From an uncultured Solirubrobacteraceae bacterium (GTDB lineage Bacteria > Actinomycetota > Thermoleophilia > Solirubrobacterales > Solirubrobacteraceae), in NCBI GenBank assembly GCA_902806205.1, contig CADCVR010000019.1, positions 1 to 64,000 on the forward strand: a stretch of 64,000 bases of DNA, in the 5' to 3' direction. Both the position numbers and the translations under genes were made by a program. The notes beneath the pieces were generated by a model. That model saw only the letters and a list, made by a program, of their open reading frames with translations, had not been told where the DNA came from and ran no database searches. Positions 39,411 to 61,789 of the stretch are shown piece after piece (positions within the stretch are counted from its first letter, which is position 1; each line of letters starts with the position of its first letter).

Positions 39411-39574
39411 AGAACCTGTTTCGAAATGAGGCGCCGTCGTGAGGGAGCCGGATCGTGGATGACCGGCGTCGCGCGATGCCGTGATCAATCCTGTTCGGAT
39501 TGATGGCGGCGTCGGGTGGCGTCGGTTGCCGCGAGACGGTTTCCTCACGGCCGCGCCTTTTCGAAACAGGTTCT
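39411..39574. repeat. 164-nt palindromic (MITE-like) element, copy E1
   Basis: A self-complementary element. Its ends (agaacctgtttcgaaa and the reverse complement) are perfect for 16 nt and imperfect to about 35 nt. Inside are a box gccggatcgtggatg (39447-39461), an 8-bp inner hairpin (39484-39491 with 39497-39504), and a second box (39511-39540). The same architecture, with near-identical spacing and homologous boxes, occurs at 61628-61789. No coding capacity. It starts just past the DJ-1-like stop and ends inside the stop codon of the DUF1385 remnant. Confidence 0.75.
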
Positions 39575-39950
39575 ACGCCACGACCTCGACGCCGATGATG
39601 CCGGCCGCCGCGTCCTCCGGCGCCTGCGTGGAGAGCACCACGGTCAGCGCGATGATCGCCACCTCGAGCTGGCGGTGGTCGGGCTCGCGGGTCGGCCGAC
39701 CGCCAGGCCGATGCCGCCACCAGCGCAAAGAGCCACGCGCCCGGGGAGAGCTCCTCGCCCTCGTCGCCCATCGTCGTATTGATCGAGACCAGCTGCTCAG
39801 CGCGCGGAACCCGATCCGCATCGACTCGTCGAGCGCGACGACGCCGCGCAGGACCGGCAGCCGCAGGAGCCGGTGGCGGCGCGGAACCGCGACGCCAGGG
39901 ATCATGACGCCCTCGAGGACGGCCTTGGCCGCCGACGGGGCGTCTGACAC
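39572..39950 (-). pseudogene. Decayed DUF1385-family gene
   Basis: The reverse strand holds pieces of a DUF1385 membrane protein in conserved order but in two frames. They are AVLEGVMIPGVAVPRR joined directly to HRLLRLPVLRGVVALDES, then (one frame over) MGDEGEELSPGAWLFALVA, then the C-terminal HRQLEVAIIALTVVLSTQ. The family is usually about 300 residues; only about 125 codons remain, with the central membrane region deleted. Neighbouring rpmE and prfA are its usual company in related genomes, by my recollection. Its stop TAG overlaps the tip of element E1. Confidence 0.65.
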
Positions 39951-39959
39951 CCGCGGCGG

Positions 39960-40166
39960 TCAGCCGGACTTGCGGGCGGCGCGGCGCTTGAAGCGCTCCA
40001 CGCGGCCACCCGTGTCGACCAGCTTCTGGCGACCGGTGTAGAACGGGTGGCAGTTCGAGCAGATCTCGACGTTGATCGTGTCCTGCGTCGAACGGGTCGT
40101 GAACTGGTTGCCGCAGGTGCAGGTGACCTGCGCCTCTGCGTACTTGGGATGGATCTCGATCTTCAT
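39960..40166 (-). CDS. rpmE: 50S ribosomal protein L31 (zinc-binding type)
   Basis: 68 residues. Four cysteines (C16, C18, C36, C39) in CTC and [10 protein letters not shown] form the zinc site, so this is the C+ form. The ending is Lys/Arg-rich. TAGAAT (40178-40183) lies 11 nt before the ATG and no ribosome binding site is visible. Confidence 0.97.
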
Positions 40167-40348
40167 GGCTTAAGAGGATTCTAGCGCCCGGGTCGCTGTC
40201 TGAGGGGCCGGCCTGGACGCTCGTCGCGACCTCGGGTGCAGCCGGTGGGGGGAATGCCGCCTTCGCGTCAAATGGCTGACACATCGGCGGCGACTTTTGG
40301 TGACGGCCCCGGGAGTCGCGCATCGCATTGTTACCCTCCTGCCGAAAT

Positions 40349-42973
40349 ATGGGACTTCTTCACGGGACCGCGCCGCTGGGCGACGCTCGCGACACGACGC
40401 CAAAGGGCTGGGGCACCGAGACGGCGATCTGCCTGTTCGCGGCGGTGCTCGCCTTCGGGACGCTCGCGTGGATGCAGATGCTTCACACCTACGTCGTCGC
40501 GTTCGAGCCAGGCACCGGCGGTTCGCATTTCCTGCGTGACGGGCTGCTGCTGCTGCCCCTGGGGCTGGCGGCGTCCTTGTGGGGCTTGCACCGTCGAACA
40601 GACGCCGGCCTGCTGAGGGTGGCGGCGGTCACCGCCGCGGCGTTCGTCGCCCTGCTCGTCCCGGCGACGGCGGCTCACAGCGTCCTGCACGACGCCGACG
40701 CGGCGGGGGCGGCCCACGCCGGCGCCTCCGGGGGCACGGTCACGCTGCCGATGGCGCCGGAGAGCCATGGGCTCACGAGCACGGTGGTCCACGGCTTGAC
40801 GGACGCGTTGCTCGCCCTGCCGGTCGCGTTCTTGCTGTCGCTGGTCGCGCTTGCCCTGCTGCGCCGACGCCGCCGGCCGGCGGTCATCCCCGCCGCCCCT
40901 CGCAGGCGACTCGTGCTCACCGTCTCGACCCTGGTCGTCGCGGCCGCGGCCGCGGCCGTGCCGATGAGCGGGGCGGCCAGCCCCGACTTCCCCCGCTTCA
41001 CCCAGCCCTTGACGATTCCGCCCGTGCTCACCGGCCGGGACATCACCCTCACCATGGCCCAGACGCAGCAGCAGGTCCTGCCCACGGGTCCACCGACGAC
41101 GGTCTGGACCTACAACGGCAGCATGCCCGGGCCGACCATCCGCCGGCCGACCGGCGAACCGACGAACGTCACCATCAAGAACGACCTGCCCGCGACCGCC
41201 GGGAGCATGTCGACCCACCACCACGGGGCGCAGACGACCGAGGACAGTGACGGACACCCGACGAGCTTCCTGATCCCCCCGGGCGGCAGCAAGACCTACG
41301 TCTATCCCGCGATCGACAACGGCGCCCCCGAGCGCGCGGCCCCGCAGTGGTACCACGACCATCGAGACATGGTCACGGGACGCAACGTCTGGATGGGCCT
41401 CTTCGGCGCGTTCATCTACGACGATCCCCTGGAGCAGAGCCTGAACCTCCCGAAGGGTGAGCACGACGTCCCGCTGATGGTGGCCGACCGGACGTTCGAC
41501 GCCGAGAACCAGATGCCCTACACCTTCCTGGCCGGCGGCGTCATGGGCGACGTGATCCTGGTCAACGGGGTCCCTCAGCCGTTCCAGGAGGTCGGGGACC
41601 GCCGGTACCGCTTCCGGCTCTACAACGTCTCGAACAAGCGCGACTACAGCTTCCGCCTGAGCAACGGCCAGTCGATGACGCAGGTCGGCGCCGACACCGG
41701 ATTGCTGCCCGCGCCCGTGTCGCGCACGAGCATCCGGCTGGGGCCGGCGGAGCGCGCCGACGTGATCATCGACTTCGCGGGTCGCCTCGGCGAGAACATC
41801 GTGCTCCAGAACGCAGAGGCATTCTCGCCGTCTGACCGGACTGCGGAAGTGATGCAGTTCCGGGTGACGCGGGACGTCAACGACACGAGCTCCCCGCCTC
41901 CCGCCACGCTGAGGCCGCTGGCGCCGACCGCCCCGCCGGTCGTCACCCGCACCTGGAACTTCGACCGCACGGCCGGGAAGTGGACGATCAACGGGGCCGG
42001 GTTCGACCCCGCCCGCGTCGACGCGAAGCCGACGCTCGGCACGACCGAGCGCTGGGTGTTCCGCAACCCGACGACCCAGGCGCACATGGTCCACGTCCAC
42101 CTGGGCGACCAGAAGCTCGTCACCCGCGACGGCCAGCCGCCGCCGGCCTTCGAGCGGCTCAAGGAGACGTGGTACGTGGCCCCGGGCGAGGAGGTGGTGG
42201 TGGACATCCCGTTCACCGACTACACCGGCACGTTCATCATGCACTGCCACGTCCTCGAGCACGAGGACGACGGGATGATGACCCAGTTCCAGACGCTTCC
42301 CGGCCGCGCGGCCGATCCTCATCCCCCCGGGCACTCCCCTCCGGGGACCGGGAAGCCCCCCGCGCCGACGCCGCCGACGCCGGGGCGGACCACGCAGCTC
42401 AAGGCCCCGGCGAAGCTGCGGGTGGAGCGCGCCCAGATTCGCGACGGGCGCCTGCAGGCGCTGGTGCGCACGACCGCGCTGGCGACGGGCAGCGCGCGCG
42501 TCAGCCTCCAGGCGGCGGGGCAGACGGTGACGTTCTCCGAGCCCATCGTGCGCGGCACGGTGCGCGTGTCGCGCAAGCTGTCCCGGGCGCAGTCGCGGCT
42601 GGGCACGGGGATCCTGAGCGTCTCCTACGCAGGCAACGCGCGCGTGCGGCGCGACGCGGTACGCCTGCGCGCGGCAAGCCGCTCGGCGAGGCTGGTCCGG
42701 AAGACGGCGCGCATCGTCGCCGGTGAGCTGCAGGTCTCCGGAACGGTCTCCCGCGCGGCGCCCGGCGTGGTGCGGGTGCGCCTGGGCTACGACGCCGGCG
42801 ACGGGACGGCGAAGTTCCTCAACTACCGCGCGCGGATCACCCGCGGTCGCTGGCGCCTGTCGGAGAAGCTGCCGACGGCCGCGCGCCGGGGCGGCCAGCT
42901 GTCGATCCAGTACACCGGCTCGCTCCGCGGACGGATCGCCGGCGCGCAGACCGAGAAGCAGGTCACCCCCTGA
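40349..42973 (+). CDS. Membrane-anchored multicopper oxidase with C-terminal repeat modules
   Basis: 874 residues. Residues 1-225 hold about five hydrophobic helices. Residues 235-650 are a laccase/CueO-type multicopper oxidase: [38 protein letters not shown] and [14 protein letters not shown] supply the four-copper ligands, including the type 1 Cys-His and a Met. After a Pro-rich linker come two ~95-residue repeats (about residues 690-870) with IxxGxL and SYAGN/QYTGS patterns, probably beta-sandwiches. TACCCT (40332-40337) precedes the ATG. Likely role: copper or metal oxidation at the membrane. Confidence 0.83.
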
Positions 42974-42981
42974 CCGAACGC

Positions 42982-43034
42982 GGGCGGCGTGTGCTCAGAT
43001 CCACCTCAGGGGTGGATCCGAGCGCACGCCGCCC
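42982..43034. terminator. Long bidirectional hairpin between multicopper oxidase and ETF-QO genes
   Basis: Arms of 24 nt (42982-43005 and 43011-43034) pair at 22 positions around a 5-nt loop. It lies just after the oxidase stop and 12 nt before the ETF-QO stop, between converging genes, so it can end both transcripts. No T-run is present. Confidence 0.7.
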
Positions 43035-43045
43035 CACGTCGGCCT

Positions 43046-44818
43046 CTACATCAGCTGGTACAGCGGGCCGTCGCCGCCCTCCGGGGTCGTCAGGCGACCG
43101 CCCTTGGCCGTGATCGCTCCGCACTGCACGCAGTTGGTGTAGTTGACGATGACGTCGACGTGGGCCCGGGGGTCGCCCTCGGTCGCCTCGAGCTGCTCCT
43201 CGGCGATCTCGTAGACGCCCGCCGGGCACATCCAGCGCCAGGACTCCGCGATCACGCGCGGGACGTTCTTGCGCACCCTGATGTGGTTCGGGGCGTCGTC
43301 GCGGGTCGCGTTGCCGGTGATGAAGACCGAGGAGAGCTTGTCGAACGTGTACGTGCCGTCCGGCTTGGGGTAGCTGTCCTTCGTCTTGCCGAGGAACATC
43401 GGCGTCTCGTCGGAGGGCTTCATCGGGATGCGGCGGGCGGGGAACCTCCCCTTGGTCGCGATGAGCAGATTGGTGAGCGGCCCCCCCTTGATCAGACCCT
43501 TCTGCGCCAGGGGCTGGCGCGTGTTGCGCACCTCCCACAGCTCCTGGCCGACCAGTGAGGCGTCGATGTCCTCCTCGTACCGCGCGAAGCTCGTCTCGCC
43601 GCGCTTGAGCGCGTGATGGATGTTCTCCGCGGCGATGATGCCGGCCTTGATGGCGTAGTGGACGCCCTTCAACGCCGTCGTGTTGACCATGCCGCCGGCG
43701 TCGCCGACGAGCACCGCGCCCGGCATGGAGAGCTTCGGCATGGACCAGTAGCCGCCGCCGGGCAACGCCTTGGCGCCCCAGCCGACGCGCTCTCCGCCCT
43801 CGAGGATCCGCCTGACGAGCGGATGCAGCTTGAACTGCTGCAGGAGGTCGTGGGCGGAGGTGGTCGCGTCGGCGTAGTCGAGGTCGACGACGAATCCGAT
43901 GGAGACCAGATCCTCGCCGGTCTTCTCGTTCTTCATGGGGTAGATCCACGACCCCCCCGTGTGGTGGTACTTCGCGCTCAGCTTGAGCGGCCAGGGGCCG
44001 ATCGTGTGGATCACGCGGTCCAGCGGCTCGGCCACCTTCCAGATCTCCTTCACCCCGAGCTCCCAGCTCTGGGGCTCGCGGCCGGCGGCGAGGCCGAACT
44101 CCCGGATGGCGGCGCCCGTCAGGTGGCCCCAGCAGCCCTCCGCGAGGACCGTGGCCTGCGCGGTGATGTCGGCTCCCGGCTCGAAGTTGCCGAGCTCCTC
44201 GCCGTGCTTGCCGCGCCCCTTGTCGCCCGAGCGGATGCCCTGGACGCGCCCGTCGGTGACCAGCAGCGCGGTGGCGGCCGTCTCGGTGAGCACGTAGGCG
44301 CCCGCGGCTTCGGCCTGCGCGGCGAGGTACCGGCACAGCGCGGCGACGGAGATGACCTCGGCGCCGTGGTTGCGAAACGGCGGTGGGGTCGGGATGCGCA
44401 CCGACGTCTTGGAGGAGGGCAGCAGGTACACGCCCTCCTTCTCGACCTCCCCGAACGCGAAGCCGGCTTCGCGCCAGTCCTCGCGGGAGACGTCGGGCAG
44501 CAGCTCCAGCAGCGGGTCGGGCCGCATGACCGCACCGGACAGGTTGTGCCCGCCGCAGGCCTTGGCCTTCTCGACGACGGCGACGGGGACCTCGCCGAGG
44601 CGCTCCATCGTCTGCGGGTCGTCCCCGAGCAGCTGGAGCAGCCGGGTCGCGCAGGCGAGGCCCGCGGTACCACCGCCGACGATCGCCACACCGACCTCGA
44701 TGCGCTCGTCCTCGGGGTCCAGGGCGCGCTTGACGAACTCGCGCTGCGAGTCCACCGGGGGAGGGAACGCGGCGGGAATCGTCGCGTGTGCGTTGCCGTC
44801 TTGGTTCCTACCGGCCAT
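43046..44818 (-). CDS. Electron transfer flavoprotein-ubiquinone oxidoreductase-like protein
   Basis: 590 residues. N-terminal FAD site VAIVGGGTAGLACATRLLQL near residue 42 and GAVMRPDPLLELLPD are typical of ETF-QO. The C-terminal region has a [4Fe-4S] ferredoxin segment with CPAGVYEI and NCVQCGAITAKGG. It passes electrons from ETF to the quinone pool at the membrane. It is 7 nt downstream of etfA, so the three genes form one operon. Confidence 0.9.
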   Translation of the reverse strand: MAGRNQDGNAHATIPAAFPPPVDSQREFVKRALDPEDERIEVGVAIVGGGTAGLACATRLLQLLGDDPQTMERLGEVPVAVVEKAKACGGHNLSGAVMRPDPLLELLPDVSREDWREAGFAFGEVEKEGVYLLPSSKTSVRIPTPPPFRNHGAEVISVAALCRYLAAQAEAAGAYVLTETAATALLVTDGRVQGIRSGDKGRGKHGEELGNFEPGADITAQATVLAEGCWGHLTGAAIREFGLAAGREPQSWELGVKEIWKVAEPLDRVIHTIGPWPLKLSAKYHHTGGSWIYPMKNEKTGEDLVSIGFVVDLDYADATTSAHDLLQQFKLHPLVRRILEGGERVGWGAKALPGGGYWSMPKLSMPGAVLVGDAGGMVNTTALKGVHYAIKAGIIAAENIHHALKRGETSFARYEEDIDASLVGQELWEVRNTRQPLAQKGLIKGGPLTNLLIATKGRFPARRIPMKPSDETPMFLGKTKDSYPKPDGTYTFDKLSSVFITGNATRDDAPNHIRVRKNVPRVIAESWRWMCPAGVYEIAEEQLEATEGDPRAHVDVIVNYTNCVQCGAITAKGGRLTTPEGGDGPLYQLM

Positions 44819-44825
44819 AAGGGTC

Positions 44826-45800
44826 CTAGGCGCCGCGCTTGGCCGCGATCGCCTCGGTGAGCTTGGGCACGATCTTGTTCAGGTCGCCGACGACCCCCAG
44901 GTCTGAGAACTCGAAGATCGGGGCGTTCGCGTCCTTGTTGATCGCGACGATGTTCTCCGAGGACTGCATGCCGACCTTGTGCTGGATCGCGCCGGAGATG
45001 CCGGCGGCCAGGTAGAGCTTCGGCGCGACGGTCTTGCCCGTCTGACCGATCTGGCCGGCGTACGGGTACCAGCCGGCGTCGACGACCGCGCGCGTGGCGG
45101 CGACGGCGGTGTTGCCGCCGAAGGCCCTGGCGAGCTCCTCGAGGAGGCCGAAGCCGTCGGCGTTCCCGAGGCCGCGGCCACCGGCGACCAGCGTGCCGGC
45201 GCCCTCGATGTCGACGTCGGCGCCCCGCTGCTCGCCGCGCGAGACGATCACGGCCCGTGCCGCCTGCGGCGATGGCTCGGCCTCCACCGCGACGACCTCG
45301 GCCGAACCACCCGAGGTCTTGGCCTCGAACGCGTTCAAGCGCCCGACGATGATGCCCTTGTCCCGGTAGCGGGACTGCGAGATGGCGGAGTCGCCGAGGA
45401 TCGGGCGCTGGGCGATCAGCTTGCCGTCCTCCACGATGACGCCCGTGACCTCCATCGTCACCCCGGCCCGGAGCCGGGCGGCAAGGCCGGCACCGGCCTC
45501 GAAGCCCACCAGGCCGCCGCCGAACAGGGCGTACTGGACGCCGTTCTCCTCCATCACCTGGGCCATCACGTCGACGACGGGTTGCGCGAGGCCCTCGGGG
45601 CCTTCGGCCTTGAAGACCTTGGCGGCGCCGTAGTCGCCGAGGGTCGCGGCGAGCGCGTCGGGAATCTCCTGCCCGACGACGACGGCGTGCGCCTGACCGC
45701 CGGTCTCGGCCGCCAGACGCGCACCCTCGGTGATGGCTCCGAGCGAGTTCTTGTTGAAGGTTCCCTCGTGGTGCAGGGCGTAGATCAGGATGTCGGCCAT
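44826..45800 (-). CDS. etfA: Electron transfer flavoprotein alpha subunit
   Basis: 324 residues. The C-terminal FAD domain shows [59 protein letters not shown] and [20 protein letters not shown]. It pairs with EtfB, accepting electrons from acyl-CoA dehydrogenases. Its ATG overlaps the etfB stop by one base. Confidence 0.95.
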
Positions 45801-46591
45801 CAGATCAGCTTCCTCTCGTCGAGCCAGGCGACGATCTTGCCGACCGTCGCGTTCGTGTCGTCGTCCTCGATGATCTGTCCCGCGGCCTTCTGCGGCGGGG
45901 CCCTGAACTCACCGCAGCGGACCTGCGAGCCGTCCGCGCCGACCATGGACGTGTCGATCCCGGCGTCGACGGCCGCGAGGGTCTGCAGCGGCTTCTTCTT
46001 CGCCCCCATGATCGCCTTGAGCGACGGGTAGCGCGGCTCGTTGATCGCGTCGCCGACGGAGATCACGGCAGGCAGCCGGACCTCGACGGTGTCATAGCCG
46101 TACTCGGCCTGACGCTCGCAGCGGACTGCTTCCCCGGTGACGTCCATCTTCACCACCTGCGTGAGCGACGGCATGCCGAGGTGCTCGGCCACGACCGCGC
46201 CGATCGTGTAGCACTCGCCGTCGTCGGACTGCTGGCCGAGGAGGACGAGATCGGGCTCCTCCTGTCCGAGCGCCGACGCGAGCGCGTAGCCCGTCGCCGC
46301 GACGTCGGAGCCTGCGAGGACGGGGTCGGTGAGATGGATGGAGCGGTCCGCGCCGAGCGAGACGGCCTTGTGGAGGGCACGGACGGCGGACTCGGGGCCC
46401 ATCGTGACCGCGACGATCTCGTCGATCTGGAGCTCGCCACCCTCTTTGAGCTGCATGGCCGCCTCGATGGCGTGCGTGTCGTAGGGGTTCAGGTTCTTCT
46501 CTCCTGAACGGTCCATCCGACCCGTGGACGGATCGATGCGCTTTGTGACGGCGGCGTCTGGCACCTCTTTGACCAGGACACAGATCTTCAC
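45800..46591 (-). CDS. etfB: Electron transfer flavoprotein beta subunit
   Basis: 263 residues. MKICVLVKEVPDAAVTKRID-type N-terminus (GTG-initiated), NPYDTHAIEAAMQLKE, GQQSDDGECYTIGAVVAEHLG and LPAVISVGDAINEPRYPSLKAI are EtfB features including the AMP-binding region. A strong AGGAGG (46597-46602 on the minus strand) lies 5 nt before the start. It is first in etfB-etfA-ETF-QO. Confidence 0.95.
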   Translation of the reverse strand: MKICVLVKEVPDAAVTKRIDPSTGRMDRSGEKNLNPYDTHAIEAAMQLKEGGELQIDEIVAVTMGPESAVRALHKAVSLGADRSIHLTDPVLAGSDVAATGYALASALGQEEPDLVLLGQQSDDGECYTIGAVVAEHLGMPSLTQVVKMDVTGEAVRCERQAEYGYDTVEVRLPAVISVGDAINEPRYPSLKAIMGAKKKPLQTLAAVDAGIDTSMVGADGSQVRCGEFRAPPQKAAGQIIEDDDTNATVGKIVAWLDERKLI

Positions 46592-46615
46592 TTCGGCCTC
46601 CTCTGGCAACGGACC

Positions 46616-46651
46616 TCGCCAGTGTAGCCGTGGGGTTGACTGACGGGTCAA
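46616..46651 (-). promoter_or_regulatory. Promoter/operator region of the etf operon
   Basis: On the minus strand TTGACC and TACACT are about 19 nt apart, longer than ideal. The -35 lies inside a dyad, TTGAC (46636-46640) and GTCAA (46647-46651), 6 nt between arms. The 10-mer gttgactgac (46635-46644) is also found at 49187-49196, upstream of the acyl-CoA mutase gene. A shared repressor of acyl-CoA genes is a reasonable guess. Confidence 0.35.
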
Positions 46652-46704
46652 TCGGGCATCTCGCCGATCCGCCGGTGGCGCCGGGCACGCGCGGGATCGT
46701 GACC

Positions 46705-47112
46705 CTACTGGCGGTGGACGGCACCGCGGATGAAGTCGATGATCGCCTGGGTCGGCGCGCCGGGCGTGAACACCTCGGCGACTCCGAGCGCCTTGAGCTC
46801 CGGGATGTCGTCGGAGGGAATCGTCCCGCCGACGGTGACGACGACGTCCTCGATGCCCTGGTCTGAGAGCAGCTCGACGATGCGGGGGACGAGCGTCATG
46901 TGGGCGCCCGAGAGGATCGACAGCCCCACGGCGTCGGCGTCCTCCTGGATCACGGTCGCGACGATCTGCTCCGGGGTCTGATGCAGCCCGGTGTAGATGA
47001 CCTCCATGCCCGCGTCCCGCAGCGCCCGGGCGATGATCTTCGCGCCGCGATCGTGACCGTCCAGACCGGGCTTGGCGACCACGACACGGATCTTCTTCTG
47101 CACGGTGGGCAT
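46705..47112 (-). CDS. icmB: Acyl-CoA mutase small subunit, B12-binding (isobutyryl-CoA mutase type)
   Basis: 135 residues, a stand-alone cobalamin-binding domain. The base-off B12 motif DxHxxG is in [15 protein letters not shown] (Asp18, His20, Gly23), followed by [12 protein letters not shown] and [12 protein letters not shown]. Length and layout match the small subunit of two-chain acyl-CoA mutases such as IcmB. It is 272 nt downstream of the large subunit with its own TATGCT box (47122-47127) 9 nt before the ATG. The 47113-47384 interval shows no gene. Confidence 0.85.
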
Positions 47113-53948: not shown

Positions 53949-53954
53949 GGCTCG

Positions 53955-53960
53955 ATGCTA
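53955..53960 (-). promoter_or_regulatory. Candidate -10 box of the RNA-repair operon
   Basis: TAGCAT on the minus strand, 6 nt before the ATG of the first gene. A leaderless mRNA would result. No separate promoter is apparent for hen1 or pnkp. Confidence 0.35.
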
Positions 53961-53980
53961 CGGGTCCTCGAGACGACGGC

Positions 53981-54745
53981 TCAGCGCACCACACGGCGCG
54001 CCGCCACCGAGCGGCCCGCGGTGCCGACCAGGCCGACGAGGCCGAGCGCGACTCCAGCCCTCAGCCGCCGCCCGAGCCGGTCGAAGCGCATGACGTCCCA
54101 ACCCTGCTCGCGCGCGACGCGCAGCAGCTCGGTGTCCGGGTTGACCGCGACGGGATGCCCGACGGCGCGCAGCATCGGCAGGTCGGACTCCGAGTCGGAG
54201 TAGGCGTAGCTCGTGGCGAGGTCGTAGCCCTCCTCGGCGGCCAGGCGGCGAAGCTCGATCGCCTTGCCCTCGCGGTAGGTGAACGGGCCGCCCGCACGGC
54301 CGGTGTAGACGCCGTCGACGATCTCCGAGCGTGCGCCGATCGCCCCGTCGAAGGCCAGCACGTGGGCCATCATCTCGGCCATCTCCTGGGAGGCGGCGGT
54401 GACGATGTAGACTGGGCGGCCCGCGTCCTGGTGGGCGTAGGCGGTGTCGAGCATCTGCGGGTAGAGCCGCGGCAGGACGCCCGCGAGAACCTTCGGGGTC
54501 ATGCGCTGGAAGTCGACCACCCGGCGCCCGCGGATCATGTCTGCGACCTCCAGCTTGACCTGGTCGGTGGCCTTGTCCGTCGAGCCCTGCAGGCGGAACT
54601 TCACGTTCTGCCACCCGTAGCGGGCCATCTGGCGGCGGCTGAGCAGGCCCGCACTGCGCGCGGCGCGGGCCCAGTGCAGGCCGGACGACCCCGCCATGAG
54701 CGTCTTGTCGAGGTCGAAGAACGCGGCGCCGCGGGGCTCTGGCAT
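53981..54745 (-). CDS. HAD-family hydrolase, SerB/IB-like phosphatase
   Basis: 254 residues. HAD motif I FFDLDKTLM (nucleophile Asp), motif II IVTAAS, and motif IV YAYSDSESDLPMLRAVG are intact; the cap is of the C1 type. Family members hydrolyse phosphoserine or lysophospholipid headgroups. The C-terminus ends in a hydrophobic stretch and basic tail (LRAGVALGLVGLVGTAG), perhaps a membrane contact. TAGCCT (54755-54760) lies 9 nt before the ATG. The substrate is unknown. Confidence 0.83.
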   Translation of the reverse strand: MPEPRGAAFFDLDKTLMAGSSGLHWARAARSAGLLSRRQMARYGWQNVKFRLQGSTDKATDQVKLEVADMIRGRRVVDFQRMTPKVLAGVLPRLYPQMLDTAYAHQDAGRPVYIVTAASQEMAEMMAHVLAFDGAIGARSEIVDGVYTGRAGGPFTYREGKAIELRRLAAEEGYDLATSYAYSDSESDLPMLRAVGHPVAVNPDTELLRVAREQGWDVMRFDRLGRRLRAGVALGLVGLVGTAGRSVAARRVVR

Positions 54746-54922
54746 GCCGGCCGAAGGCTAGATGAGTTCTCTCGCGAGGCGATCCCGACGATGCGCCTGG
54801 CTCGGTTCACAGACGGGGCGCAGTGCCCCGGGGCGACCGTAGAGGACGGTGAGCAGCTGTTTTCTAAAATCAGAGCGGTTCCTCGGAGCGATTCCTTCCG
54901 CTTCGACTCACGACGTCAGTCG

Positions 54923-56104
54923 TCAGCCATGGACCTTCAGGATGAGCGCGTCGCCCTGCCCGCCGCCCGAGCAGATCGCCGCGACGCCGTAGCCGCCACC
55001 GCGGCGCCTGAGCTGCTGCACGAGCGCCCCGACGATGCGCGCGCCGGAGGCGCCGATCGGGTGCCCGAGCGCGACCGCGCCGCCGTTGACGTTCACGCGG
55101 TCCTCGTCGATGCCGAGCATCCGCAGCGACTGGAGGGTCACCGACGCGAAGGCCTCGTTGATCTCCCACAGGTCGATGTCGGAGGGCTGCAGGCCCGCCT
55201 TGTCGAGCGCCTTCATCGCCGAGAGCGCCGGGGTGGTCTGGAGGACCGCGGTATCGCCGGCGGTCTGCGCGTGGGCGACGATCTCGGCCAGGACGGTCTT
55301 GCCGTTCGCGGCCGCCCACCCGTCCGCGGCGAGCACGAGCGCGCCCGCGCCGTCGTTGACTCCGGGTGAGTTGCCCGCGGTGTGCGAGCCTTCCTTGCCG
55401 TGCAGGCCGGGGAGCTTGGCCAGCGCCTCCAACGAGGAGCCGCGGCGCGGACCCTCGTCGACCTCGACGAGCGTGTCGCCCTTGCGCCCCTTCACCGTCA
55501 CCGGGACGACCTCGTCGCTCATGCGGCCGTCGTCGATCGCGGCCAAGGCGAGCTCGTGGGAGCGCAGCGCCCAGCGGTCGAGGTCGAGCCGGGTGAGCTC
55601 GAACTGCTCGGAGGTCTCCGTCGCCTCGACGAACATCTGCTTGCCGGTGAACGCGTTGGTCAGGCCGTCGTGGACCATGGCGTCGAGCGCCTTGGCGTCG
55701 CCCATGCGGTAGCCGAAGCGAGCCTGGGGAAGCAGGTAGGGCGCGCCGGACATGGACTCCATCCCGCCGCCGACGCCGACCTCGACGTCGCCGCCCCGGA
55801 TCGCCTGGTCGAGGATCACCGCGGCGCGCAGCCCGGAGGCGCACACCTTGTTGACGGTCTCCGAGGTCGTCTCCTTGGGGATCCGGGCGTTCAGCTGGGC
55901 CTGGCGGGAGGGGATCTGGCCCTGGCCGGCCTGGAGCACCTGGCCCATGACGACGTGGTCTACCTGCTCCGGGGCGACGTCGGCGCGCTCGAGCGCAGCG
56001 GAGATCGCGAGGCCACCGAGCTCGGTGGCCTTGAGGCTCGAGAGGCCGCCGCCGAGCTTGCCGATGGGCGTGCGGGCGGTGCCGAGGATGACGGTCTTGG
56101 GCAT
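54923..56104 (-). CDS. Acetyl-CoA acetyltransferase (thiolase)
   Basis: 393 residues. Catalytic Cys in NKVCASGLRAAVI (about residue 90), GHPIGASGARIVGAL (His) and the second Cys in CSGGGQGDAL near the end. N-terminal ILGTARTPIGKLGG matches acetyl-CoA acetyltransferases of the biosynthetic/degradative type. TACCCT (56112-56117) lies 7 nt before the ATG at 56104. It is divergent from the aminopeptidase gene, and the 177-nt gap on its 3' side has no gene. Confidence 0.93.
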   Translation of the reverse strand: MPKTVILGTARTPIGKLGGGLSSLKATELGGLAISAALERADVAPEQVDHVVMGQVLQAGQGQIPSRQAQLNARIPKETTSETVNKVCASGLRAAVILDQAIRGGDVEVGVGGGMESMSGAPYLLPQARFGYRMGDAKALDAMVHDGLTNAFTGKQMFVEATETSEQFELTRLDLDRWALRSHELALAAIDDGRMSDEVVPVTVKGRKGDTLVEVDEGPRRGSSLEALAKLPGLHGKEGSHTAGNSPGVNDGAGALVLAADGWAAANGKTVLAEIVAHAQTAGDTAVLQTTPALSAMKALDKAGLQPSDIDLWEINEAFASVTLQSLRMLGIDEDRVNVNGGAVALGHPIGASGARIVGALVQQLRRRGGGYGVAAICSGGGQGDALILKVHG

Positions 56105-56139
56105 GGGCCTGAGGGTAGTCGCCGGGTAGCGTGGGCGGC

Positions 56140-57600
56140 ATGGACGATGTCTGTGCCACCACCGCCGCACCCGTCGACACCGCGGCGGACACGGTGGCGC
56201 TCGGGGTCTTCGCGGGCAAGCGGATCCCCCACGACCTGGACGGCGCGCCGCTGCAGGCGCTGCTCGACGCCGGCGAGGCGCGCGCAGCGTTCAAGCACCT
56301 CGCGGTCACCCACGCCGCGGGCAAGCGCTGGATCCTGGTCGGGCTCGGCGGGCGGGACGACTTCACCCCGGAACGGGCGCGGATCGCCGCCGCCGTCGTC
56401 CACGGGCGCGCCCGCGAGCTCGGCGCCGCGAGCCTCTGCTGGGAGCTCCCCCACCGCCTCGACGACGTCGAGGTCGCGGCCTTCGTGGAGGGGACGCTGC
56501 TGGCCGCGCGACGCTTCGACCGCTACAAGGCGCCACCGGAGGACCCGGAGACCGAGGAGCGCCCAGGCGGCCTTGCCGCACTCATCGCCTCCGACCACGC
56601 CGACCGCTCCGCCGCGGTGGCGCGCGCCGTGGTCGTCGCCGGGGCGCAGAACCGGGCGCGCGACCTGCAGGACCGCGCGCCGAACGACCTGACGCCGACC
56701 CGGCTGGCCGACCGCGCGCGCGAGCTCGAAGCGCTCGGGGTCGGCGTGGAGGTCGAGGGACGCGCGAAGATCCTCGCGCGGCGGATGGGCGCCTTCGCCG
56801 CGGTGTTCCAGGGATCGGCCGAGGAGCCCGCGCTGATCACGCTGCGCTGGCGCGGCGCCCGCGCCCGCGGCCCGGTGCTCGGGCTCGTCGGCAAGGGCGT
56901 GACCCATGACACGGGGGGCTACGCGCTCAAGCCGAAGGGCTCCATCGCGGCGATGAAGTTCGACATGAGCGGCGCGGCCGCGGTGCTCGAGGCGGTCGCG
57001 GCGATCGCGGAGCTCGAGCTTCCCGTCGACCTCGTGGCGGTCATCGGCGCGACGGACAACTCGATCGACGCCGCAGCCGTCCATCCCGGCGACGTGGTCC
57101 GCGCGGCCAACGGGCTGACCGTCGAGGTCAACAACCCCGACGCGGAGGGCCGGCTCGTGCTCGCCGACTGCCTCACGCACGCGCGGTCGCTGGGAGCGGA
57201 GCGCCTGGTGGACCTCGCGACGCTCACAGGCGGCGCGATCACGGCGCTCGGCACGGTCCACTGCGCGCTGTTCGCCAACGACGAGCAGTGGGCAGGAGCG
57301 CTCGAGGCTGCCTCGGCGACCAGCGGGGAGCTCGTGTGGCGCATGCCGCTTCACCCGGATTACGCCGAGCAGCTCAAGGGCCGCTACGCCGACCTGGACA
57401 ACTCGCCGGGCGGCGGAAAGGCGCAGCCCGTGCTGGCGGCGGAGTTCCTGCACCGCTTCGCGGGCGACACGCCGTGGGCGCACATCGACCTGACCGCGGC
57501 CAACGACCTCGGCAAGCCCTACGCGAAGCACGGCGGCGCGGGGTGGGGCGTCCGGCTGCTCGTGGAGCTGGCCGAGCAGCACGGGGCCGCGCCGGCCTGA
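56140..57600 (+). CDS. pepA: Leucyl aminopeptidase (M17 cytosol aminopeptidase)
   Basis: 486 residues. The M17 signature NNPDAEGRLVLADCLTHA and metal/substrate segments VGKGVTHDTGGYALKPKG, MKFDMSGAAAVLEAV are intact. N-terminal domain about 160 residues, catalytic C-terminal domain the rest. It removes N-terminal residues from peptides. The ATG at 56140 is 7 nt after TAGCGT (56127-56132); an alternative GTG at 56131 overlaps that box. Confidence 0.92.
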   Translation: MDDVCATTAAPVDTAADTVALGVFAGKRIPHDLDGAPLQALLDAGEARAAFKHLAVTHAAGKRWILVGLGGRDDFTPERARIAAAVVHGRARELGAASLCWELPHRLDDVEVAAFVEGTLLAARRFDRYKAPPEDPETEERPGGLAALIASDHADRSAAVARAVVVAGAQNRARDLQDRAPNDLTPTRLADRARELEALGVGVEVEGRAKILARRMGAFAAVFQGSAEEPALITLRWRGARARGPVLGLVGKGVTHDTGGYALKPKGSIAAMKFDMSGAAAVLEAVAAIAELELPVDLVAVIGATDNSIDAAAVHPGDVVRAANGLTVEVNNPDAEGRLVLADCLTHARSLGAERLVDLATLTGGAITALGTVHCALFANDEQWAGALEAASATSGELVWRMPLHPDYAEQLKGRYADLDNSPGGGKAQPVLAAEFLHRFAGDTPWAHIDLTAANDLGKPYAKHGGAGWGVRLLVELAEQHGAAPA

Positions 57601-57623
57601 CGCCTCTCTCCGCAGAAGGCGGG

Positions 57624-57666
57624 GCGGCGAGCCCGCCGCACGGACGGCGCGACGGGCTCTCGCCGC
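57624..57666. terminator. Hairpin between pepA and the secreted protein gene
   Basis: GCGGCGAGCCCG pairs with CGGGCTCTCGCCGC (2-nt bulge) around a 17-nt loop. It lies between converging genes, 23 nt after the pepA stop and 4 nt before the stop at 57671. Confidence 0.5.
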
Positions 57667-57670
57667 GGGC

Positions 57671-58162
57671 CTACTTGTCGCGGTTGCCGCCGCTGCTCTC
57701 GATCTCGCCGTCGTCGACCTTGTTGTCGGCGTCGGCCGGCATGCGGCGGGCCTCGAGGACCACCGTTCCGAAGGTCTGCTCGTCGCCGAGCCGGATGCGT
57801 GCGATGGCCAGCGCCGGCTCGTTGTGCTTCGTGCGCTGGCACCCACCGCGGCCGGCGGCGTCAGTCACGAACGAGCAGACCGCCGTATCGGCGGGCTCAC
57901 GAACGGTGTTCCCGTTCTCGGCCCAGAACGTGTACCGGGTGTTCGGTGCCAGGCCGCTGACGCGCACGTGGCTGTTCCACAACTCGTCGTCCGGGCTCGA
58001 GGCGCCGGCCACGTAGTTGCTGACGCCGCGGCCGTCCGCGCCGGGCGCGGCCGCCGTCGCCTTGAAGTCGAAGCGGTTGTTGCTCTCGTGGGCGGCCAAG
58101 GCCGCGGGAGCCGCGGTGGCGACGCCTGCGGCGACGACTCCCGCGATGATCAGCTTGCGCAT
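57671..58162 (-). CDS. Small secreted protein, unknown function
   Basis: 163 residues with a standard signal peptide (MRKLIIAGVVAAGVATAAPA, cut near AALAAHE). The mature part has FDFKATAAAPGADGRGV, a beta-rich NSHVRVSGLAPNTRYTFWAEN and two cysteines that could form a disulfide (CSFVTD and CQRTKHN). It resembles small extracytoplasmic beta domains (CHRD- or Fn3-like), but I cannot assign a family. A Shine-Dalgarno-like AGGAG precedes the ATG by about 12 nt, so unlike many genes here it is led. Confidence 0.7.
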   Translation of the reverse strand: MRKLIIAGVVAAGVATAAPAALAAHESNNRFDFKATAAAPGADGRGVSNYVAGASSPDDELWNSHVRVSGLAPNTRYTFWAENGNTVREPADTAVCSFVTDAAGRGGCQRTKHNEPALAIARIRLGDEQTFGTVVLEARRMPADADNKVDDGEIESSGGNRDK

Positions 58163-58356
58163 GGGTTCTGTGTCTCCTGTGGAGTAGGACGAACTGCGTT
58201 CGCGCCTGAGTACGTCACCCCCGGCACTTCGGAGAGCCCACCCGCACCGTCGTGGCGCGTCGCCACTCGCTCGCCGCACGCGGAAGGCAACGCGCGGGCA
58301 GGTCGGGATCGCAGTACGTTGTCGCGGGTGAGGACCCCCGGGCGCGGCGTCGCGTG

Positions 58357-59631
58357 ATGCGCCGCGGCGCCCTGCTCTGGCTCGTGCTGCTCGCGGCGTA
58401 CGCCACGACGCTCGGCGTCGACGCGACCCCCCGGGAGCGCTACTCCGTCCCCGAGGCGCACCGGCTGCTCACCGCCAAGTCCCTGGCCGAGGACCGCAGC
58501 CTCGAGCTCAGCGACGAGTACGCCGCGCGCGACTGGGCGGCGTTCTCGGCCCGGCCGCTGGTCCCGACCGTCCCGCCGCGCGACGGCCGCCTGATCGAGC
58601 CGCAGGGCATCGGCTTCGCGCTGCTCACCGCGCCGGCCTACGCGCTCGGCGGGCCCCGCGGCGTCGAGGTGCTCTGCGCCGGCCTGCTCGCGCTCGCCTT
58701 CGCGTTGTCGGCTGCGCTTGCGCGGCGCCTCGTCCCGGATCCGTGGGCGACCCGCGCGGCGCTCGTCGCCGGGCTGAGCCCGCCCGCGCTCGCGGGCGCC
58801 ACGACGATCGCTCCCGCGTCGGCGGCCGCCGCGCTTGTGACGGGCGCCGCGCTGCTCGCGCTCCGGGTCCGCGACGACCCCCGCCTGGGTGCCGCCGCGC
58901 GTGCCGCGGGGCTCGTCGCGCTGCTGCCCTGGCTCGGGGTGCGCTTCCTCGCCCCCGGCGGGGTGGTGCTGGTCGCCCTCGCGCGGTGGTTGCGCCGGCG
59001 CCAGCGTGGGGTGACGGGCCTGGTCGCGGTCGAGGTGCTGCTCTCGAGCGCGGTGGCGCTGATCAGCGTGAACGAACGGCTCTTCGGCGGCCTGGTGCCG
59101 AGCGCCGCGGAGCCCGGGGCCGCCCCGGGCGGTGCCGCCGGCGTCGAGGACGCGGCGGAGCTCCTCGGCCGTGTTCCCGCGCTGCTCGGAGCGCTCGTCG
59201 GCCGGGACGCCGGCCTCCTGCGCTGGGCGCCCGTCCTGGCGCTGGCCGGTGTCTCGCTGTGGCTGCTGGCGCGCTCGCGCCGCGACCGCGTCGCCCTGGC
59301 GCTCCCGGAGCGCATCCAGGTGGAGGTCTCCACCACGCTCTTCGCGGCGACCGCTGCCGCCGGACTGGCCGCCGCGGCGCTCGCAGCCCCGTCGCTCCGG
59401 GGCCCCTGGCTCGTCCCGGGAGACGTGCTGGCGGTGCTGCCCGTCGCCGGAGCGCTGGCGGCGTGGGGGCTCCGAAACGCCCCGCGGACGGGCGTCGCGC
59501 TCGCCGTGCTGACGCTGGCGGGCTCGGCGTGGCTGGTTCTCGGCGTGCACCTGGGCAACGACGCCGGCCTCGCTCCCCCGTCGGGACCGTTGCCCTGGGG
59601 CGGCCTCGAAGCGCTGCTGCCGCCGCTGTAG
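58357..59631 (+). CDS. Multi-spanning membrane protein, unknown function
   Basis: 424 residues with about 8-10 hydrophobic segments. After the first helix (LLWLVLLAAYATTLGVDATP) comes a polar stretch (ERYSVPEAHRLLTAKSLAED) that resembles the periplasmic loop of GT-C or mannosyltransferase-like proteins, but the Asp motif is not clear. ATG at 58357 (or GTG at 58354). It stands alone between the secreted protein and meaB. Confidence 0.6.
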   Translation: MRRGALLWLVLLAAYATTLGVDATPRERYSVPEAHRLLTAKSLAEDRSLELSDEYAARDWAAFSARPLVPTVPPRDGRLIEPQGIGFALLTAPAYALGGPRGVEVLCAGLLALAFALSAALARRLVPDPWATRAALVAGLSPPALAGATTIAPASAAAALVTGAALLALRVRDDPRLGAAARAAGLVALLPWLGVRFLAPGGVVLVALARWLRRRQRGVTGLVAVEVLLSSAVALISVNERLFGGLVPSAAEPGAAPGGAAGVEDAAELLGRVPALLGALVGRDAGLLRWAPVLALAGVSLWLLARSRRDRVALALPERIQVEVSTTLFAATAAAGLAAAALAAPSLRGPWLVPGDVLAVLPVAGALAAWGLRNAPRTGVALAVLTLAGSAWLVLGVHLGNDAGLAPPSGPLPWGGLEALLPPL

Positions 59632-59649
59632 CGAACAGAGGGGCGGCGG

Positions 59650-60606
59650 TCAGGCCTCGAAGTGCTTCAGGATCCGCGTGGCGGCACTCGCGGGATCGAG
59701 CCGGCGCTCGACGACCTCCGCGAGCAGGCGGTTGAGCTCGTCGTCGCCGTCCATCCGCGCGGCGAGGTCGCGACGCAGGCGGAAGGTGCAGATCGAGAGC
59801 ACCTCGTTGCGCAGGTTGCGCTGCCGGCGCTCGCTCAGCGTGCCCTCCGCCTCGATGAACACGCGGTGGTCGTCGAGCTTCTCCCTGAGCGCCTCGACGC
59901 CCACCCCGCGCGAGGCCTCGGTCTTGAGGATCGGCACGCGCCACGCGCCCTTGATCGCCGGGGCGAGCGACAGCACCCCGCGGATGTCGCGGACCATCGT
60001 ATCCGTCAGCGGGTGATCGGCCTTGTTGACGACGATGATGTCCGGGATCTCCATGATCCCCGCCTTGAGCGCCTGGATCGAGTCGCCTGAGCCCGGCATG
60101 AGCACGAGCACCACCGTGTCGGCGTGGTCGATGACGTCGATCTCGGCCTGTCCGACTCCGACGGTCTCCAGCAGCACGTCGTCCTTGCCCGAGGCGTCCA
60201 TGAGCAGCGCGGCCTGGAGCGCCGCCTCGCTGAGGCCGCCGAGCGCTCCGCGGTTGGCCATGGAGCGGATGAACACCCCTGTGTCGAGGAAGTGCTCGGT
60301 CAGGCGGATGCGGTCGCCGAGCAGGGCGCCGTGGGTGAACGGGCTCGACGGGTCGATCGAGAGGACCGCCACCTGGCGACCGGCCTCGCGGCGCAGCTTG
60401 GTCAGCGCGGAGATCAGCGTCGACTTGCCCGAGCCGGGCGCGCCCGTCAGCCCGACGATCGACGCCTTGCCCGTCTGCGGGAAGACCTCACGGACAAGCT
60501 CCCAACCCGCCGGGTCGTCGTTCTCCACGAGCGTGATCGCCCGCGCGAGCGCGCGCTTGTCCCCGGCGAGGAGGCGCTCGGCGAGGCTCTGCTCGGCAGG
60601 GGGCAT
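59650..60606 (-). CDS. meaB: MeaB-family GTPase, acyl-CoA mutase chaperone
   Basis: 318 residues. P-loop LTGAPGSGKSTLISALTKL, switch-like VLSIDPSSPFTHGALLGDR, ETVGVGQAEIDVIDHADTV (DxxG-type) and NKAD are all present. The family gates cofactor loading and protects B12-dependent mutases. Its partner is probably the mutase at 46705-49028, 11 kb away. TAATGT (60616-60621) lies 9 nt before the ATG. Confidence 0.92.
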   Translation of the reverse strand: MPPAEQSLAERLLAGDKRALARAITLVENDDPAGWELVREVFPQTGKASIVGLTGAPGSGKSTLISALTKLRREAGRQVAVLSIDPSSPFTHGALLGDRIRLTEHFLDTGVFIRSMANRGALGGLSEAALQAALLMDASGKDDVLLETVGVGQAEIDVIDHADTVVLVLMPGSGDSIQALKAGIMEIPDIIVVNKADHPLTDTMVRDIRGVLSLAPAIKGAWRVPILKTEASRGVGVEALREKLDDHRVFIEAEGTLSERRQRNLRNEVLSICTFRLRRDLAARMDGDDELNRLLAEVVERRLDPASAATRILKHFEA

Positions 60607-60615
60607 GCGGCGGGC

Positions 60616-60625
60616 ACATTACCCT
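60616..60625. promoter_or_regulatory. Overlapping divergent -10 boxes for meaB and the acyltransferase
   Basis: acattaccct holds TAATGT on the minus strand (60616-60621, 9 nt before meaB) and TACCCT on the plus strand (60620-60625, 7 nt before the GTG at 60633). Same design as at 30679-30688. Confidence 0.45.
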
Positions 60626-60632
60626 TGCCCGA

Positions 60633-61316
60633 GTGGAGCCCGTCCTGTCCCCGCCCGCTCCGAGCGCGGTCCTCGCGCCCATGGTGCGCGGCGATCCCCC
60701 GCCGCGTGCGGGCGGCCCCTTGGTGCTCTGGCGCTTCATGCGCGCCAACGGGATGGTCTCGCGTGACTACGCCGGGCTTCTCGCCCGCCTGGCCTGGCTC
60801 AAGCTCCGCTGGCGCGGGCGCTTGCAGACCGACGGCTTCGCGTTCGTCTGCCCCGGGGTGACGTTCGAGATCGGCAAGGGCGCGACGGTCCACCTCGGCC
60901 GCTGGACGTGGCTCGGGCACGGCACGAAGGTCCGCGCGCACGAGGGCGAGGTGCATGTCGGGGCCAAGACGGTCATCGGCCAGGAGTGCACGATCACGTC
61001 GTTTCAGCACATCTCCATCGGGCGGGAGTGCATCGTCGCCGACCGCGTGATGCTGATCGACTTCGACCACGGCGTCGTGGAGGTCGAGCGTCCCGTCCGC
61101 GCGCAGGGCATCTACAAGCGCGACGTGCGCGTCGGGCACAACGTCTGGGTCGGCTACGGCGCCTGCTTCCTGCGCGGGGTCACCGTGGGCGACAACGCGA
61201 TCGTCGGCACGAGCGCCGTGGTGACCGGCGACGTGCCGGCCAACGCGGTGGTCGGCGGCGTGCCCGCGCGCGTGCTGCGGATGCGCGACGCGCCGCGGAC
61301 GCTGCGGTGGCGCTGA
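60633..61316 (+). CDS. Hexapeptide-repeat acyltransferase
   Basis: 227 residues. After an N-terminal helical region the protein is a left-handed beta-helix (about 75-215: VTFEIGKGATVHLGRWTWLG, VHVGAKTVIGQECTITS, then DVRVGHNVWVGYGACFLRGV, NAIVGTSAVVTGDVPANAVV). This is the CysE/LacA-type fold of O- or N-acetyltransferases. Acceptor unknown. It is followed by the DUF3253 gene, 11 nt away. Confidence 0.8.
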   Translation: MEPVLSPPAPSAVLAPMVRGDPPPRAGGPLVLWRFMRANGMVSRDYAGLLARLAWLKLRWRGRLQTDGFAFVCPGVTFEIGKGATVHLGRWTWLGHGTKVRAHEGEVHVGAKTVIGQECTITSFQHISIGRECIVADRVMLIDFDHGVVEVERPVRAQGIYKRDVRVGHNVWVGYGACFLRGVTVGDNAIVGTSAVVTGDVPANAVVGGVPARVLRMRDAPRTLRWR

Positions 61317-61327
61317 GCGCTCTGCTC

Positions 61328-61612
61328 ATGCCGGGAGCCGGGGAGATCGAAGCCGCGATCCGGGAACTGCTCGGGCGACGTGGACCCGGCAGGACGATCT
61401 GCCCGTCGGAGGCGGCACGGGCCGTCTTCGGCGACGACGCGTTCCGCGCCCACATGGACGAGGTGCGTTCCGTGGCCTTCGCTCTGGCCGACCACGGCGA
61501 GATCACGGTCACCCAGCGCGGCGCGGTCGTCGACGGGCGCACCGCGCGCGGCCCGATCCGGCTGGGCGCCACGCTGCCGGACCGGCGTTCGACTCCCCTC
61601 CCGGAACGCTGA
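61328..61612 (+). CDS. DUF3253-family small protein
   Basis: 94 residues, winged-helix-like. The segments GRTICPSEAARAVFG and ALADHGEITVTQRGAVVDG, with RGPIRLG near the end, match the DUF3253 family. A GTG at 61307 in the same frame would overlap the acyltransferase by 10 nt. It may be translated from the same mRNA. Function unknown. Confidence 0.62.
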   Translation: MPGAGEIEAAIRELLGRRGPGRTICPSEAARAVFGDDAFRAHMDEVRSVAFALADHGEITVTQRGAVVDGRTARGPIRLGATLPDRRSTPLPER

Positions 61613-61627
61613 CGTGCGCTGCGCTTC

Positions 61628-61789
61628 AGGGAGCGTCCGAAAACAAGTCGCACGGTTTGGGTGCCGGATCGTGGATGCTCGGGGCCGCGCGGCCCCGCCG
61701 CGAATACCGGTGGTATTCGCAAGGGGCCGGGTGGCTCCGAGCGCCGCGAGAAGGTGCCCAAACACGCAACTTGTTGAGAGACGCTCCCT
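61628..61789. repeat. 162-nt palindromic (MITE-like) element, copy E2
   Basis: The same architecture as E1 (39411-39574): outer arms of about 35 nt (39-nt imperfect inverted repeat starting agggagcgtc), box gccggatcgtggatg (61663-61677), a 9-bp inner hairpin (61700-61708 with 61712-61720) and a second box (61726-61755, 23 of 30 identical to E1). Distances from box 2 to the end are 34 nt in both copies. The outer arms differ between copies but each pairs with its own partner. Confidence 0.75.

What the first reader, a model, noticed from the sequence alone, without database searches (positions are those of the whole stretch)
39411..61789. Two homologous palindromic elements whose outer arms differ but still pair (E1 39411-39574, E2 61628-61789)
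Seen directly: both are 162-164 nt, with outer inverted repeats of about 35 nt, box 1 gccggatcgtggatg (15 of 15 identical, 36 and 35 nt from the left end), an inner hairpin, and box 2 (23 of 30 identical, 34 nt from the right end in both). The outer arms are dissimilar between copies, yet each left arm pairs with its own right arm. That is compensatory change, as expected for a structure under selection (a hairpin RNA, or a folded single-stranded transposition substrate), or for MITEs that acquired different ends. No protein is encoded.
Basis: partly seen in the sequence, partly recalled or inferred. Interest (0 to 1): 0.7.

Follow-up and report, generated by a model that had tools for sequence, protein, structure and literature searches.

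The report
Hairpin shared by unrelated jumping genes
Two short repeats in this bacterium belong to a family of mobile DNA hairpins, for which I found no earlier description, that keeps the same intricate fold while its sequence and its transposon-like ends keep changing, which suggests that the folded strand itself does something.

Summary
E1 (39412-39573) and E2 (61629-61788) are 162- and 160-nt near-perfect hairpins (z about -11). Box 1 occurs at 13 sites in this genome with at most one mismatch; related hairpins occur across Solirubrobacterales and in a few genomes of other orders of its class. In 87 model-aligned copies 43 of 49 base pairs show changes on both sides with pairing kept. G-T(U) mismatches in the arms outnumber A-C about 5:1, and the box-1 strand folds more stably in 90 of 90 elements tested. 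Strand-blind palindrome correction predicts neither, so the fold of one strand appears selected. The flanks are transposon-like (TNA or CTAG). One end type also flanks a 1-kb IS982-family insertion sequence; E1's end type borders a decayed IS5-like one. Related cores thus sit between ends of at least two IS families, and some copies have no such ends. I read E1 and E2 as non-autonomous, MITE-like elements with a conserved hairpin core. RNA versus single-stranded DNA is unresolved. A Y1 (RAYT-type) transposase was not found here, but occurs in 7 of 43 carrier genomes. No Rfam match. New variant of palindromic MITEs.

The parts
39412..39573 (+). E1, whole element, ends GAACCTGTTTC / GAAACAGGTTC (subfamily A)
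   Evidence: model R1 119.9 bits
39409..39411 (.). left flank TAA of E1
39574..39576 (.). right flank TAC of E1 (not identical to the left flank)
39447..39461 (+). E1 box 1 GCCGGATCGTGGATG
39528..39539 (+). E1 box 2 GCCGCGAGACGG, pairs with box 1 with conserved wobbles, a bulged A and an A-G mismatch
61629..61788 (+). E2, whole element, ends GGGAGCGTC / GACGCTCCC (subfamily B)
   Evidence: model R1 108.8 bits
61626..61628 (.). left flank TCA of E2
61789..61791 (.). right flank TTA of E2, also the left flank of the next element
61663..61677 (+). E2 box 1 GCCGGATCGTGGATG
61743..61754 (+). E2 box 2 GCCGCGAGAAGG
61792..61883 (.). adjacent second palindromic element (92 nt, TTA on both sides); perhaps a tip-deleted relative, but not itself a hit of model R1
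   Evidence: fold z -9.7; further copies; no R1 hit at this place; longer element L326:814-947 with the same ends scores 50 bits with R1

Best explanation
E1 and E2 are non-autonomous, IS-derived mobile elements (MITE-like). Each has two modules. (1) Outer terminal repeats of about 16-20 bp that match insertion sequences (an IS982-family IS for the CTAG|ATGRTTGATTCC type, an IS5-like IS for E1's TNA|GAACCTGTTTC type); these let a transposase supplied in trans move them (inferred from ends and flanks, not shown). (2) A ~120-nt inner hairpin with a defined architecture (two boxes that pair through conserved wobbles, an A-G mismatch and a bulged A; covarying stems; a G-rich apical loop). The fold of one given strand is under selection (supported by sequence statistics). 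Most likely (inferred) that strand acts as folded RNA when neighbouring transcription runs through the element, typically at gene 3' ends, where it binds an unknown host or element factor that affects RNA ending, stability or cleavage. The core has been retained while the ends changed between IS families.
For: Copies: 9 exact and 4 one-mismatch box-1 sites; 28 end-to-end palindromes among 82 GTDB pattern hits, 26 of them in Solirubrobacterales by title and taxonomy, 2 in one 'Actinomycetota' MAG. Structure: 36/49 pairs doubly changed in 30 sequences; 43/49 in 87, 92.5% of cells paired, covariation 0.663 against 0.190 shuffled and at most 0.120 slid. Strand specificity: G-T 146 to A-C 25 in outer and 124:28 in inner arms of 51 elements with both boxes; pattern-found elements only 90:11 and 78:16, 29 of 29 with more G-T; outermost 16 nt as control 30:15; box-1 strand folds more stably in 90 of 90. 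Non-Watson-Crick features: U-G 86/87 and 77/87, bulged A 77 of 80. Mobility: TNA both sides in 36 of 152 (25 identical), CTAG both sides in 15; five copies with identical cores in G036; IS982 transposase 158 bits, cut-off 130, in a ~1-kb element with the same ends; two fragments matching IS4/5-type transposase models behind E1-type ends. Position: 47 convergent, 64 tandem, 7 divergent.
Against: Genes whose stop faces the element within 150 nt are if anything antisense to it (63 sense, 90 antisense, p 0.035; 38:40 in the 75-bit set), whereas a simple mRNA 3'-end role predicts sense. No promoter, transcript or RNA-seq evidence. No run of T follows E1 or E2. 11 of 36 TNA pairs are not identical, and neither E1 nor E2 has identical flanks. 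No IS partner for E2's ends was found; the one for E1's ends is a decayed copy at a contig end in another genome, seen from one end only, its fragments below the NCBIfam cut-off. In G111 orientation follows replication (14 of 15), which fits DNA effects as well. The boxes were the search key, so part of their invariance is built in (alignment A2 by exact pattern, A3 through the model made from A2).
Confidence: 0.47

Rival explanations
1. The selected strand is single-stranded DNA: the core is a folded-DNA recognition site (as for REPINs, IS200/IS605 ends or integron attC sites) for a nuclease, transposase or recombinase, and the IS-like ends are secondary.
For: Strand-specific fold with conserved mismatches and a bulge; core copies without IS-like ends in Conexibacter-like genomes and G111/G138; orientation relative to replication in G111, 14 of 15; no sense bias relative to genes; the carriers G060, G111, G138 and G147, from which end-less copies were read, have Y1-transposase matches.
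Against: No Y1 match in this genome or in 36 of 43 carriers; carriers are not significantly enriched (7 of 43 against 10 of 108, Fisher p 0.26); in G111, G138 and G060 the Y1 genes lie tens of kilobases or more from the nearest listed element; flanks look like ordinary target duplications; in G087 only 2 of 5 follow the replication rule.
Confidence: 0.3
2. Domesticated 3'-end structure: the hairpin is kept by host genes as a bidirectional terminator or mRNA-end stabiliser; mobile copies are a source of it.
For: Rare between divergent genes (7 of 152); at the same gene end in three genomes (L049, L151, L268) with compensated differences.
Against: In the L049/L151 pair the core lies in opposite orientations at the same site; three cross-genus repeats of a neighbour gene are about what chance gives for 150 proteins (my estimate); no T-run; five copies with identical cores in G036, i.e. 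recent spread.
Confidence: 0.15
3. No selection: arms are kept complementary by template-switch correction of quasi-palindromes, and the boxes are inherited from a recent ancestor.
For: Such correction is known for palindromes (recalled); some copies are young.
Against: It is strand-symmetric, yet G-T exceeds A-C about 5:1 in arms; it should erase the conserved wobbles and bulge, which persist. Copies are related, so the counts are not independent.
Confidence: 0.07

Closest known systems
Palindromic MITEs with RNA-level effects: ERIC, Correia/NEMIS (review PMC10969869, passages seen)
   Same: Short, dispersed, non-autonomous, terminal repeats and short duplications; transcripts fold as stem-loops; RNase III cleavage (Correia) and effects on transcript levels (ERIC) are told there
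   Different: Other hosts and ends; here a specific internal architecture with covariation across an order, and related cores on ends of different IS families
REPINs (PMC3116915, passages seen)
   Same: Inverted doublets forming hairpins, dispersed in extragenic space; compensatory changes in the hairpin are reported there too
   Different: REPINs are tied to RAYT (Y1) transposases; none matched in this genome, 7 of 43 carriers have one; here duplication-like flanks and IS982/IS5-type ends
MITEs made only of IS982 / IS5-family ends (recalled)
   Same: Ends and CTAG/TNA flanks
   Different: Those would share only the ends; here about 120 nt of structured core, not seen in the two IS982-family elements read
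Integron attC sites (recalled)
   Same: Imperfect palindromes, variable arms, strand-specific fold with unpaired bases
   Different: Cassette arrays and integrase not looked for; conserved boxes lie inside the hairpin, not at its foot

Membership tests
MITE (non-autonomous IS derivative) | too short for a transposase gene | tested here: met
   162 and 160 nt; longer mechanical ORFs run through E1 and E2 from outside in this GC-rich sequence and were not followed up
MITE (non-autonomous IS derivative) | terminal inverted repeats | tested here: met
MITE (non-autonomous IS derivative) | target-site duplication | tested here: inconclusive
   family: TNA both sides 36 of 152, identical in 25, CTAG both sides 15 of 152; E1 (TAA/TAC) and E2 (TCA/TTA) are themselves not identical
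MITE (non-autonomous IS derivative) | autonomous partner with the same ends | tested here: inconclusive
   found for the CTAG|ATGRTTGATTCC type (IS982 family); only a decayed IS5-like copy, one end seen, for E1's ends; none seen for E2's ends, which were not searched for on their own
REPIN / RAYT system | Y1 (RAYT) transposase in the genome | tested here: not met
   PF01797: 0 matches in G000; 17 of 151 genomes of the order, 7 of 43 carriers
ERIC / Correia (NEMIS) | TA duplication (recalled) and family consensus | tested here: inconclusive
   flanks here are TNA or CTAG; consensus sequences not compared
Rfam RNA families | match above gathering score | tested here: not met
   0 matches in the window; at E<=1 over 6 loci only a sub-threshold TPP riboswitch beside the element in L005
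Intrinsic terminator | T-run after the stem | tested here: not met
   read directly after E1 and E2; the scan tool was not run
Integron attC | GTTRRRY/RYYYAAC core sites (recalled) and an integrase | not tested
   -

The most novel reading that the evidence does not exclude
The hairpin core is a passenger in its own right: a structured single strand (RNA or DNA) with its own function or partner protein, which has hitch-hiked on unrelated insertion-sequence families across a bacterial class by exchanging their ends, and which can also persist without any ends.
Probability: 0.35. Interest if true: 0.85.

Novelty: new variant of a known kind. Interest (0 to 1): 0.6.

Why it matters
Palindromic repeats such as ERIC, Correia and REPINs are long known, but selection on their folds is hard to tell from by-products of palindrome mutation. 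Here a strand-asymmetry count separates the two in favour of selection, and some 150 natural variants define the fold. If a partner protein exists it should recognise the two boxes, and end exchange between IS families would be a new route of MITE evolution.

Tried and rejected
REP/RAYT origin for E1 and E2: not supported, no Y1 match in this genome, but 7 of 43 carriers have one, including G060, G111, G138 and G147, from which end-less copies were read; so it is not excluded for that branch. Known RNA family: no Rfam match. An IS with E1's ends inside this genome: the only GAACCTGTTTC site outside the copies (C24:70922) looks like a truncated copy; the ends of the DDE gene 1 kb away were not worked out. 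A gene recurrently beside the core: in 496 predicted proteins within 1.6 kb the largest cross-locus clusters have 6, 4 and 4 members; one member of the first is an ABC ATPase, one of the third an acyl-CoA dehydrogenase, one of the second has no Pfam match; no transposase-like cluster among these. Conserved gene neighbour across genera: three pairs, about the chance expectation by my estimate. Empty site for E2: in the listed matches (list truncated) no relative had both flanks side by side. GC skew to infer replication direction in drafts: too noisy. Sense/antisense bias: weak and threshold-dependent. Viral collection: 3 pattern hits, none palindromic. Palindrome correction as sole cause: disfavoured.

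Rows dropped: the 152-element table was typed; hits on the complementary strand, second fetches of the same place, the partial hit L326:1697-1770 and the deletion copy L139 were left out; of 38 ids listed, 8 were not in the table (same places held under other ids), L121 lacked the exact box 2, 29 were counted; 51 of 90 elements of 60 bits or more had both boxes. Alignment A3: 87 of the 90 sources passed the cut-off. The gene caller is a simple GC-frame script; its 25 'inside a gene' cases may partly be its errors. The TNA finder may take a few CTAG-type elements for TNA (for instance L319, L129, L169).

Full report
What is there. E1 and E2 are single long hairpins bounded by transposon-like ends. 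E1 runs 39412-39573 and E2 61629-61788; both fold far better than shuffled sequence. The window lies in a draft genome of 3.38 Mb in 108 contigs. The named relatives of the elements are Solirubrobacterales, so the host is taken to be of that order, class Thermoleophilia (inference).

How common it is. Box 1 occurs at 9 sites exactly and at 4 with one mismatch; with two mismatches allowed there are 46 sites against 7 for the reversed control pattern. Twelve of the 13 best sites have both ends recognisable and fall into four end types (A-D); L010, and the two-mismatch site L014, have lost the hairpin tip. A two-box pattern finds 82 stretches in GTDB genomes; 28 fold as end-to-end palindromes, 26 in Solirubrobacterales and 2 in one MAG named only Actinomycetota; the others do not. 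A covariance model (R1) matches at E<=0.001 in 43 of 151 genomes sampled from the order. It matches at E<=1e-9 in 10 of 149 sampled from the class, four of them outside the order, and at E<=1e-8 in 2 of 296 sampled from the phylum, this genome and one of its family. These are samples and the large searches use strict filters. Matches below about 60 bits include more distant palindromic families; many that I read share the architecture (GGATG-like box, GCC-like partner, G-rich apical loop), but their membership is softer.

Is the structure selected? In 30 sequences 36 of 49 pairs have changes on both sides with pairing kept. In 87 sequences the figure is 43 of 49, with 92.5% of cells paired; the covariation score is 0.663 against 0.190 when shuffled and at most 0.120 when slid. 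The larger alignment was fitted to the model and leans towards it; the 30-sequence alignment was not, but its members were found by exact boxes. Long palindromes can also be kept complementary by template-switch mutation, which is blind to strand (recalled). I therefore aligned each left arm with the reverse complement of its right arm, without any wobble bonus, and counted the two kinds of transition mismatch outside the boxes. G-T outnumbers A-C 146:25 in outer and 124:28 in inner arms of 51 elements; transversion mismatches number 143 and 172 there. With elements found by sequence pattern alone the counts are 90:11 and 78:16, and 29 of 29 elements have more G-T. The outermost 16 nt, which a transposase should read as double-stranded DNA, show only 30:15, still uneven (p 0.036). 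As RNA the box-1 strand is more stable than its complement in 90 of 90 elements, by 25 kcal/mol on average. The boxes pair through features that correction should erase: two U-G wobbles (86/87 and 77/87), a bulged A (77 of 80 with a base) and an A opposite G (A in 76 and G in 81 of 87). Copies are related, so none of these counts is independent, and box invariance is partly built in by the search. I conclude that the fold of one strand is very probably selected.

How it moves. Of 152 elements, 36 have TNA on both sides with matching ends, 25 of them identical, and 15 have CTAG on both sides. The CTAG|ATGRTTGATTCC ends also flank ~1-kb elements in several genomes. One of these, in G030, carries a 293-aa transposase of the IS982 family (158 bits, cut-off 130); in the copy read in G133 (L362) the frame is interrupted. 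E1's end type with TTA borders a broken transposase at a contig end in G036; two separate pieces match the IS4/5-type models PF13340 and PF01609, and weakly (below cut-off) an IS5-family model. In this genome no IS with E1's ends was found; drafts often lack them. So related cores sit between ends of at least two IS families. Other copies, in Conexibacter-like genomes and in G111/G138, have no long IS-like ends and many begin at or near what read as stop codons (by eye). Several of these have CTAG on both sides, which suggests mobility with very little end sequence. In a few (for example the G111 copy at 5412453) the matching arms seem to reach into the last codons of the neighbouring gene (by eye, not followed up).

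Where it sits. By a crude gene caller, 47 of 152 lie between convergent, 64 between tandem and 7 between divergent genes; 25 overlap a predicted frame and 9 are undetermined. Orientation relative to genes is nearly free, with a slight antisense excess: stop-facing 63 sense and 90 antisense (p 0.035), start-facing 24 and 43 (p 0.027), and in the 75-bit set 38:40 and 9:16. At one gene end shared by L049, L151 and L268 the element is present in all three. Between L049 and L151 the core is inverted relative to the flanks; 7 pairs differ on both sides and still pair, 6 differ on one side, 5 are broken. In G111, whose contig begins with dnaA, 14 of 15 elements place the box-1 strand against the direction of replication (two-sided binomial about 0.001 by my own arithmetic, noticed after the fact, ter taken as half-way). 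In G087, which also begins with dnaA, only 2 of 5 do. I treat this as a lead.

Y1 transposases. Pfam Y1_Tnp matches 17 of 151 genomes of the order and not this one. Of the 43 carriers 7 have it, against 10 of 108 others (Fisher p 0.26). The 7 include G060, G111, G138 and G147, from which end-less copies were read; in G111, G138 and G060 no element listed lies within tens of kilobases of the Y1 gene. So a REPIN-like route is unsupported for E1 and E2 but open for that branch.

What it most likely is. A MITE-like mobile element with two modules: IS-type ends for movement in trans, and a structured core whose single-strand fold is selected. Whether that strand works as RNA or as DNA the sequence cannot tell: wobble tolerance and gene 3' ends fit RNA, while lack of a sense bias, the G111 pattern and the Y1 co-occurrence fit DNA. 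I put RNA somewhat ahead.

Known or new. A review of prokaryotic MITEs tells of RNase III cleavage at Correia elements and effects of ERIC on transcripts (PMC10969869, passages). REPINs are hairpin mobile elements in which compensatory changes are reported (PMC3116915, passages). So the kind is known. I found no report of this family: no Rfam match; no paper in the held library with both Thermoleophilia and miniature inverted-repeat; and no title in the listings shown that names it (listings only; most subscription papers are not held). Different are the covariation around a fixed inner architecture, and the combination of one core type with ends of different IS families.

Noticed in passing
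window 61789-61886: Directly after E2 lies another palindromic element (92 nt, TTA on both sides) with further copies at C24, C49, C64, C15 and C9; a longer element with the same ends (L326) has a core resembling E1/E2.
   Followed up: partly
G111:C1 (hits listed): 14 of 15 elements are oriented against replication, switching strand near the half-way point of a contig that starts at dnaA; not seen in G087 (2 of 5).
   Followed up: partly
G060, G111, G138, G147: Genomes from which end-less copies were read also have Y1-transposase matches, though not next to the listed elements in G060, G111 and G138.
   Followed up: partly
L049:4291-4421 and L151:1501-1631: Same intergenic site in two genomes, but the core is inverted relative to the flanks.
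   Followed up: partly
L219:6075-6129 and L222:1733-1788: Tiny palindromes of about 55 nt that keep only the outer arms of the family; the hairpin tip with both boxes is gone.
   Followed up: no
L376 and L387 (G111:C1:5412453 and 4319672): Matching arms of end-less copies seem to extend into the last codons of the neighbouring gene, as if one arm had been copied from the gene end (read by eye).
   Followed up: no
36 TNA-flanked elements: In 11 of 36 the middle base of TNA differs between the two sides, also in near-identical copies (L032, L102).
   Followed up: no
L005:1624-1735 (minus strand): A sub-threshold TPP riboswitch match (45 bits, cut-off 54.3) abuts a copy of the element (L005:1465-1628), overlapping its last 5 nt.
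   Followed up: no
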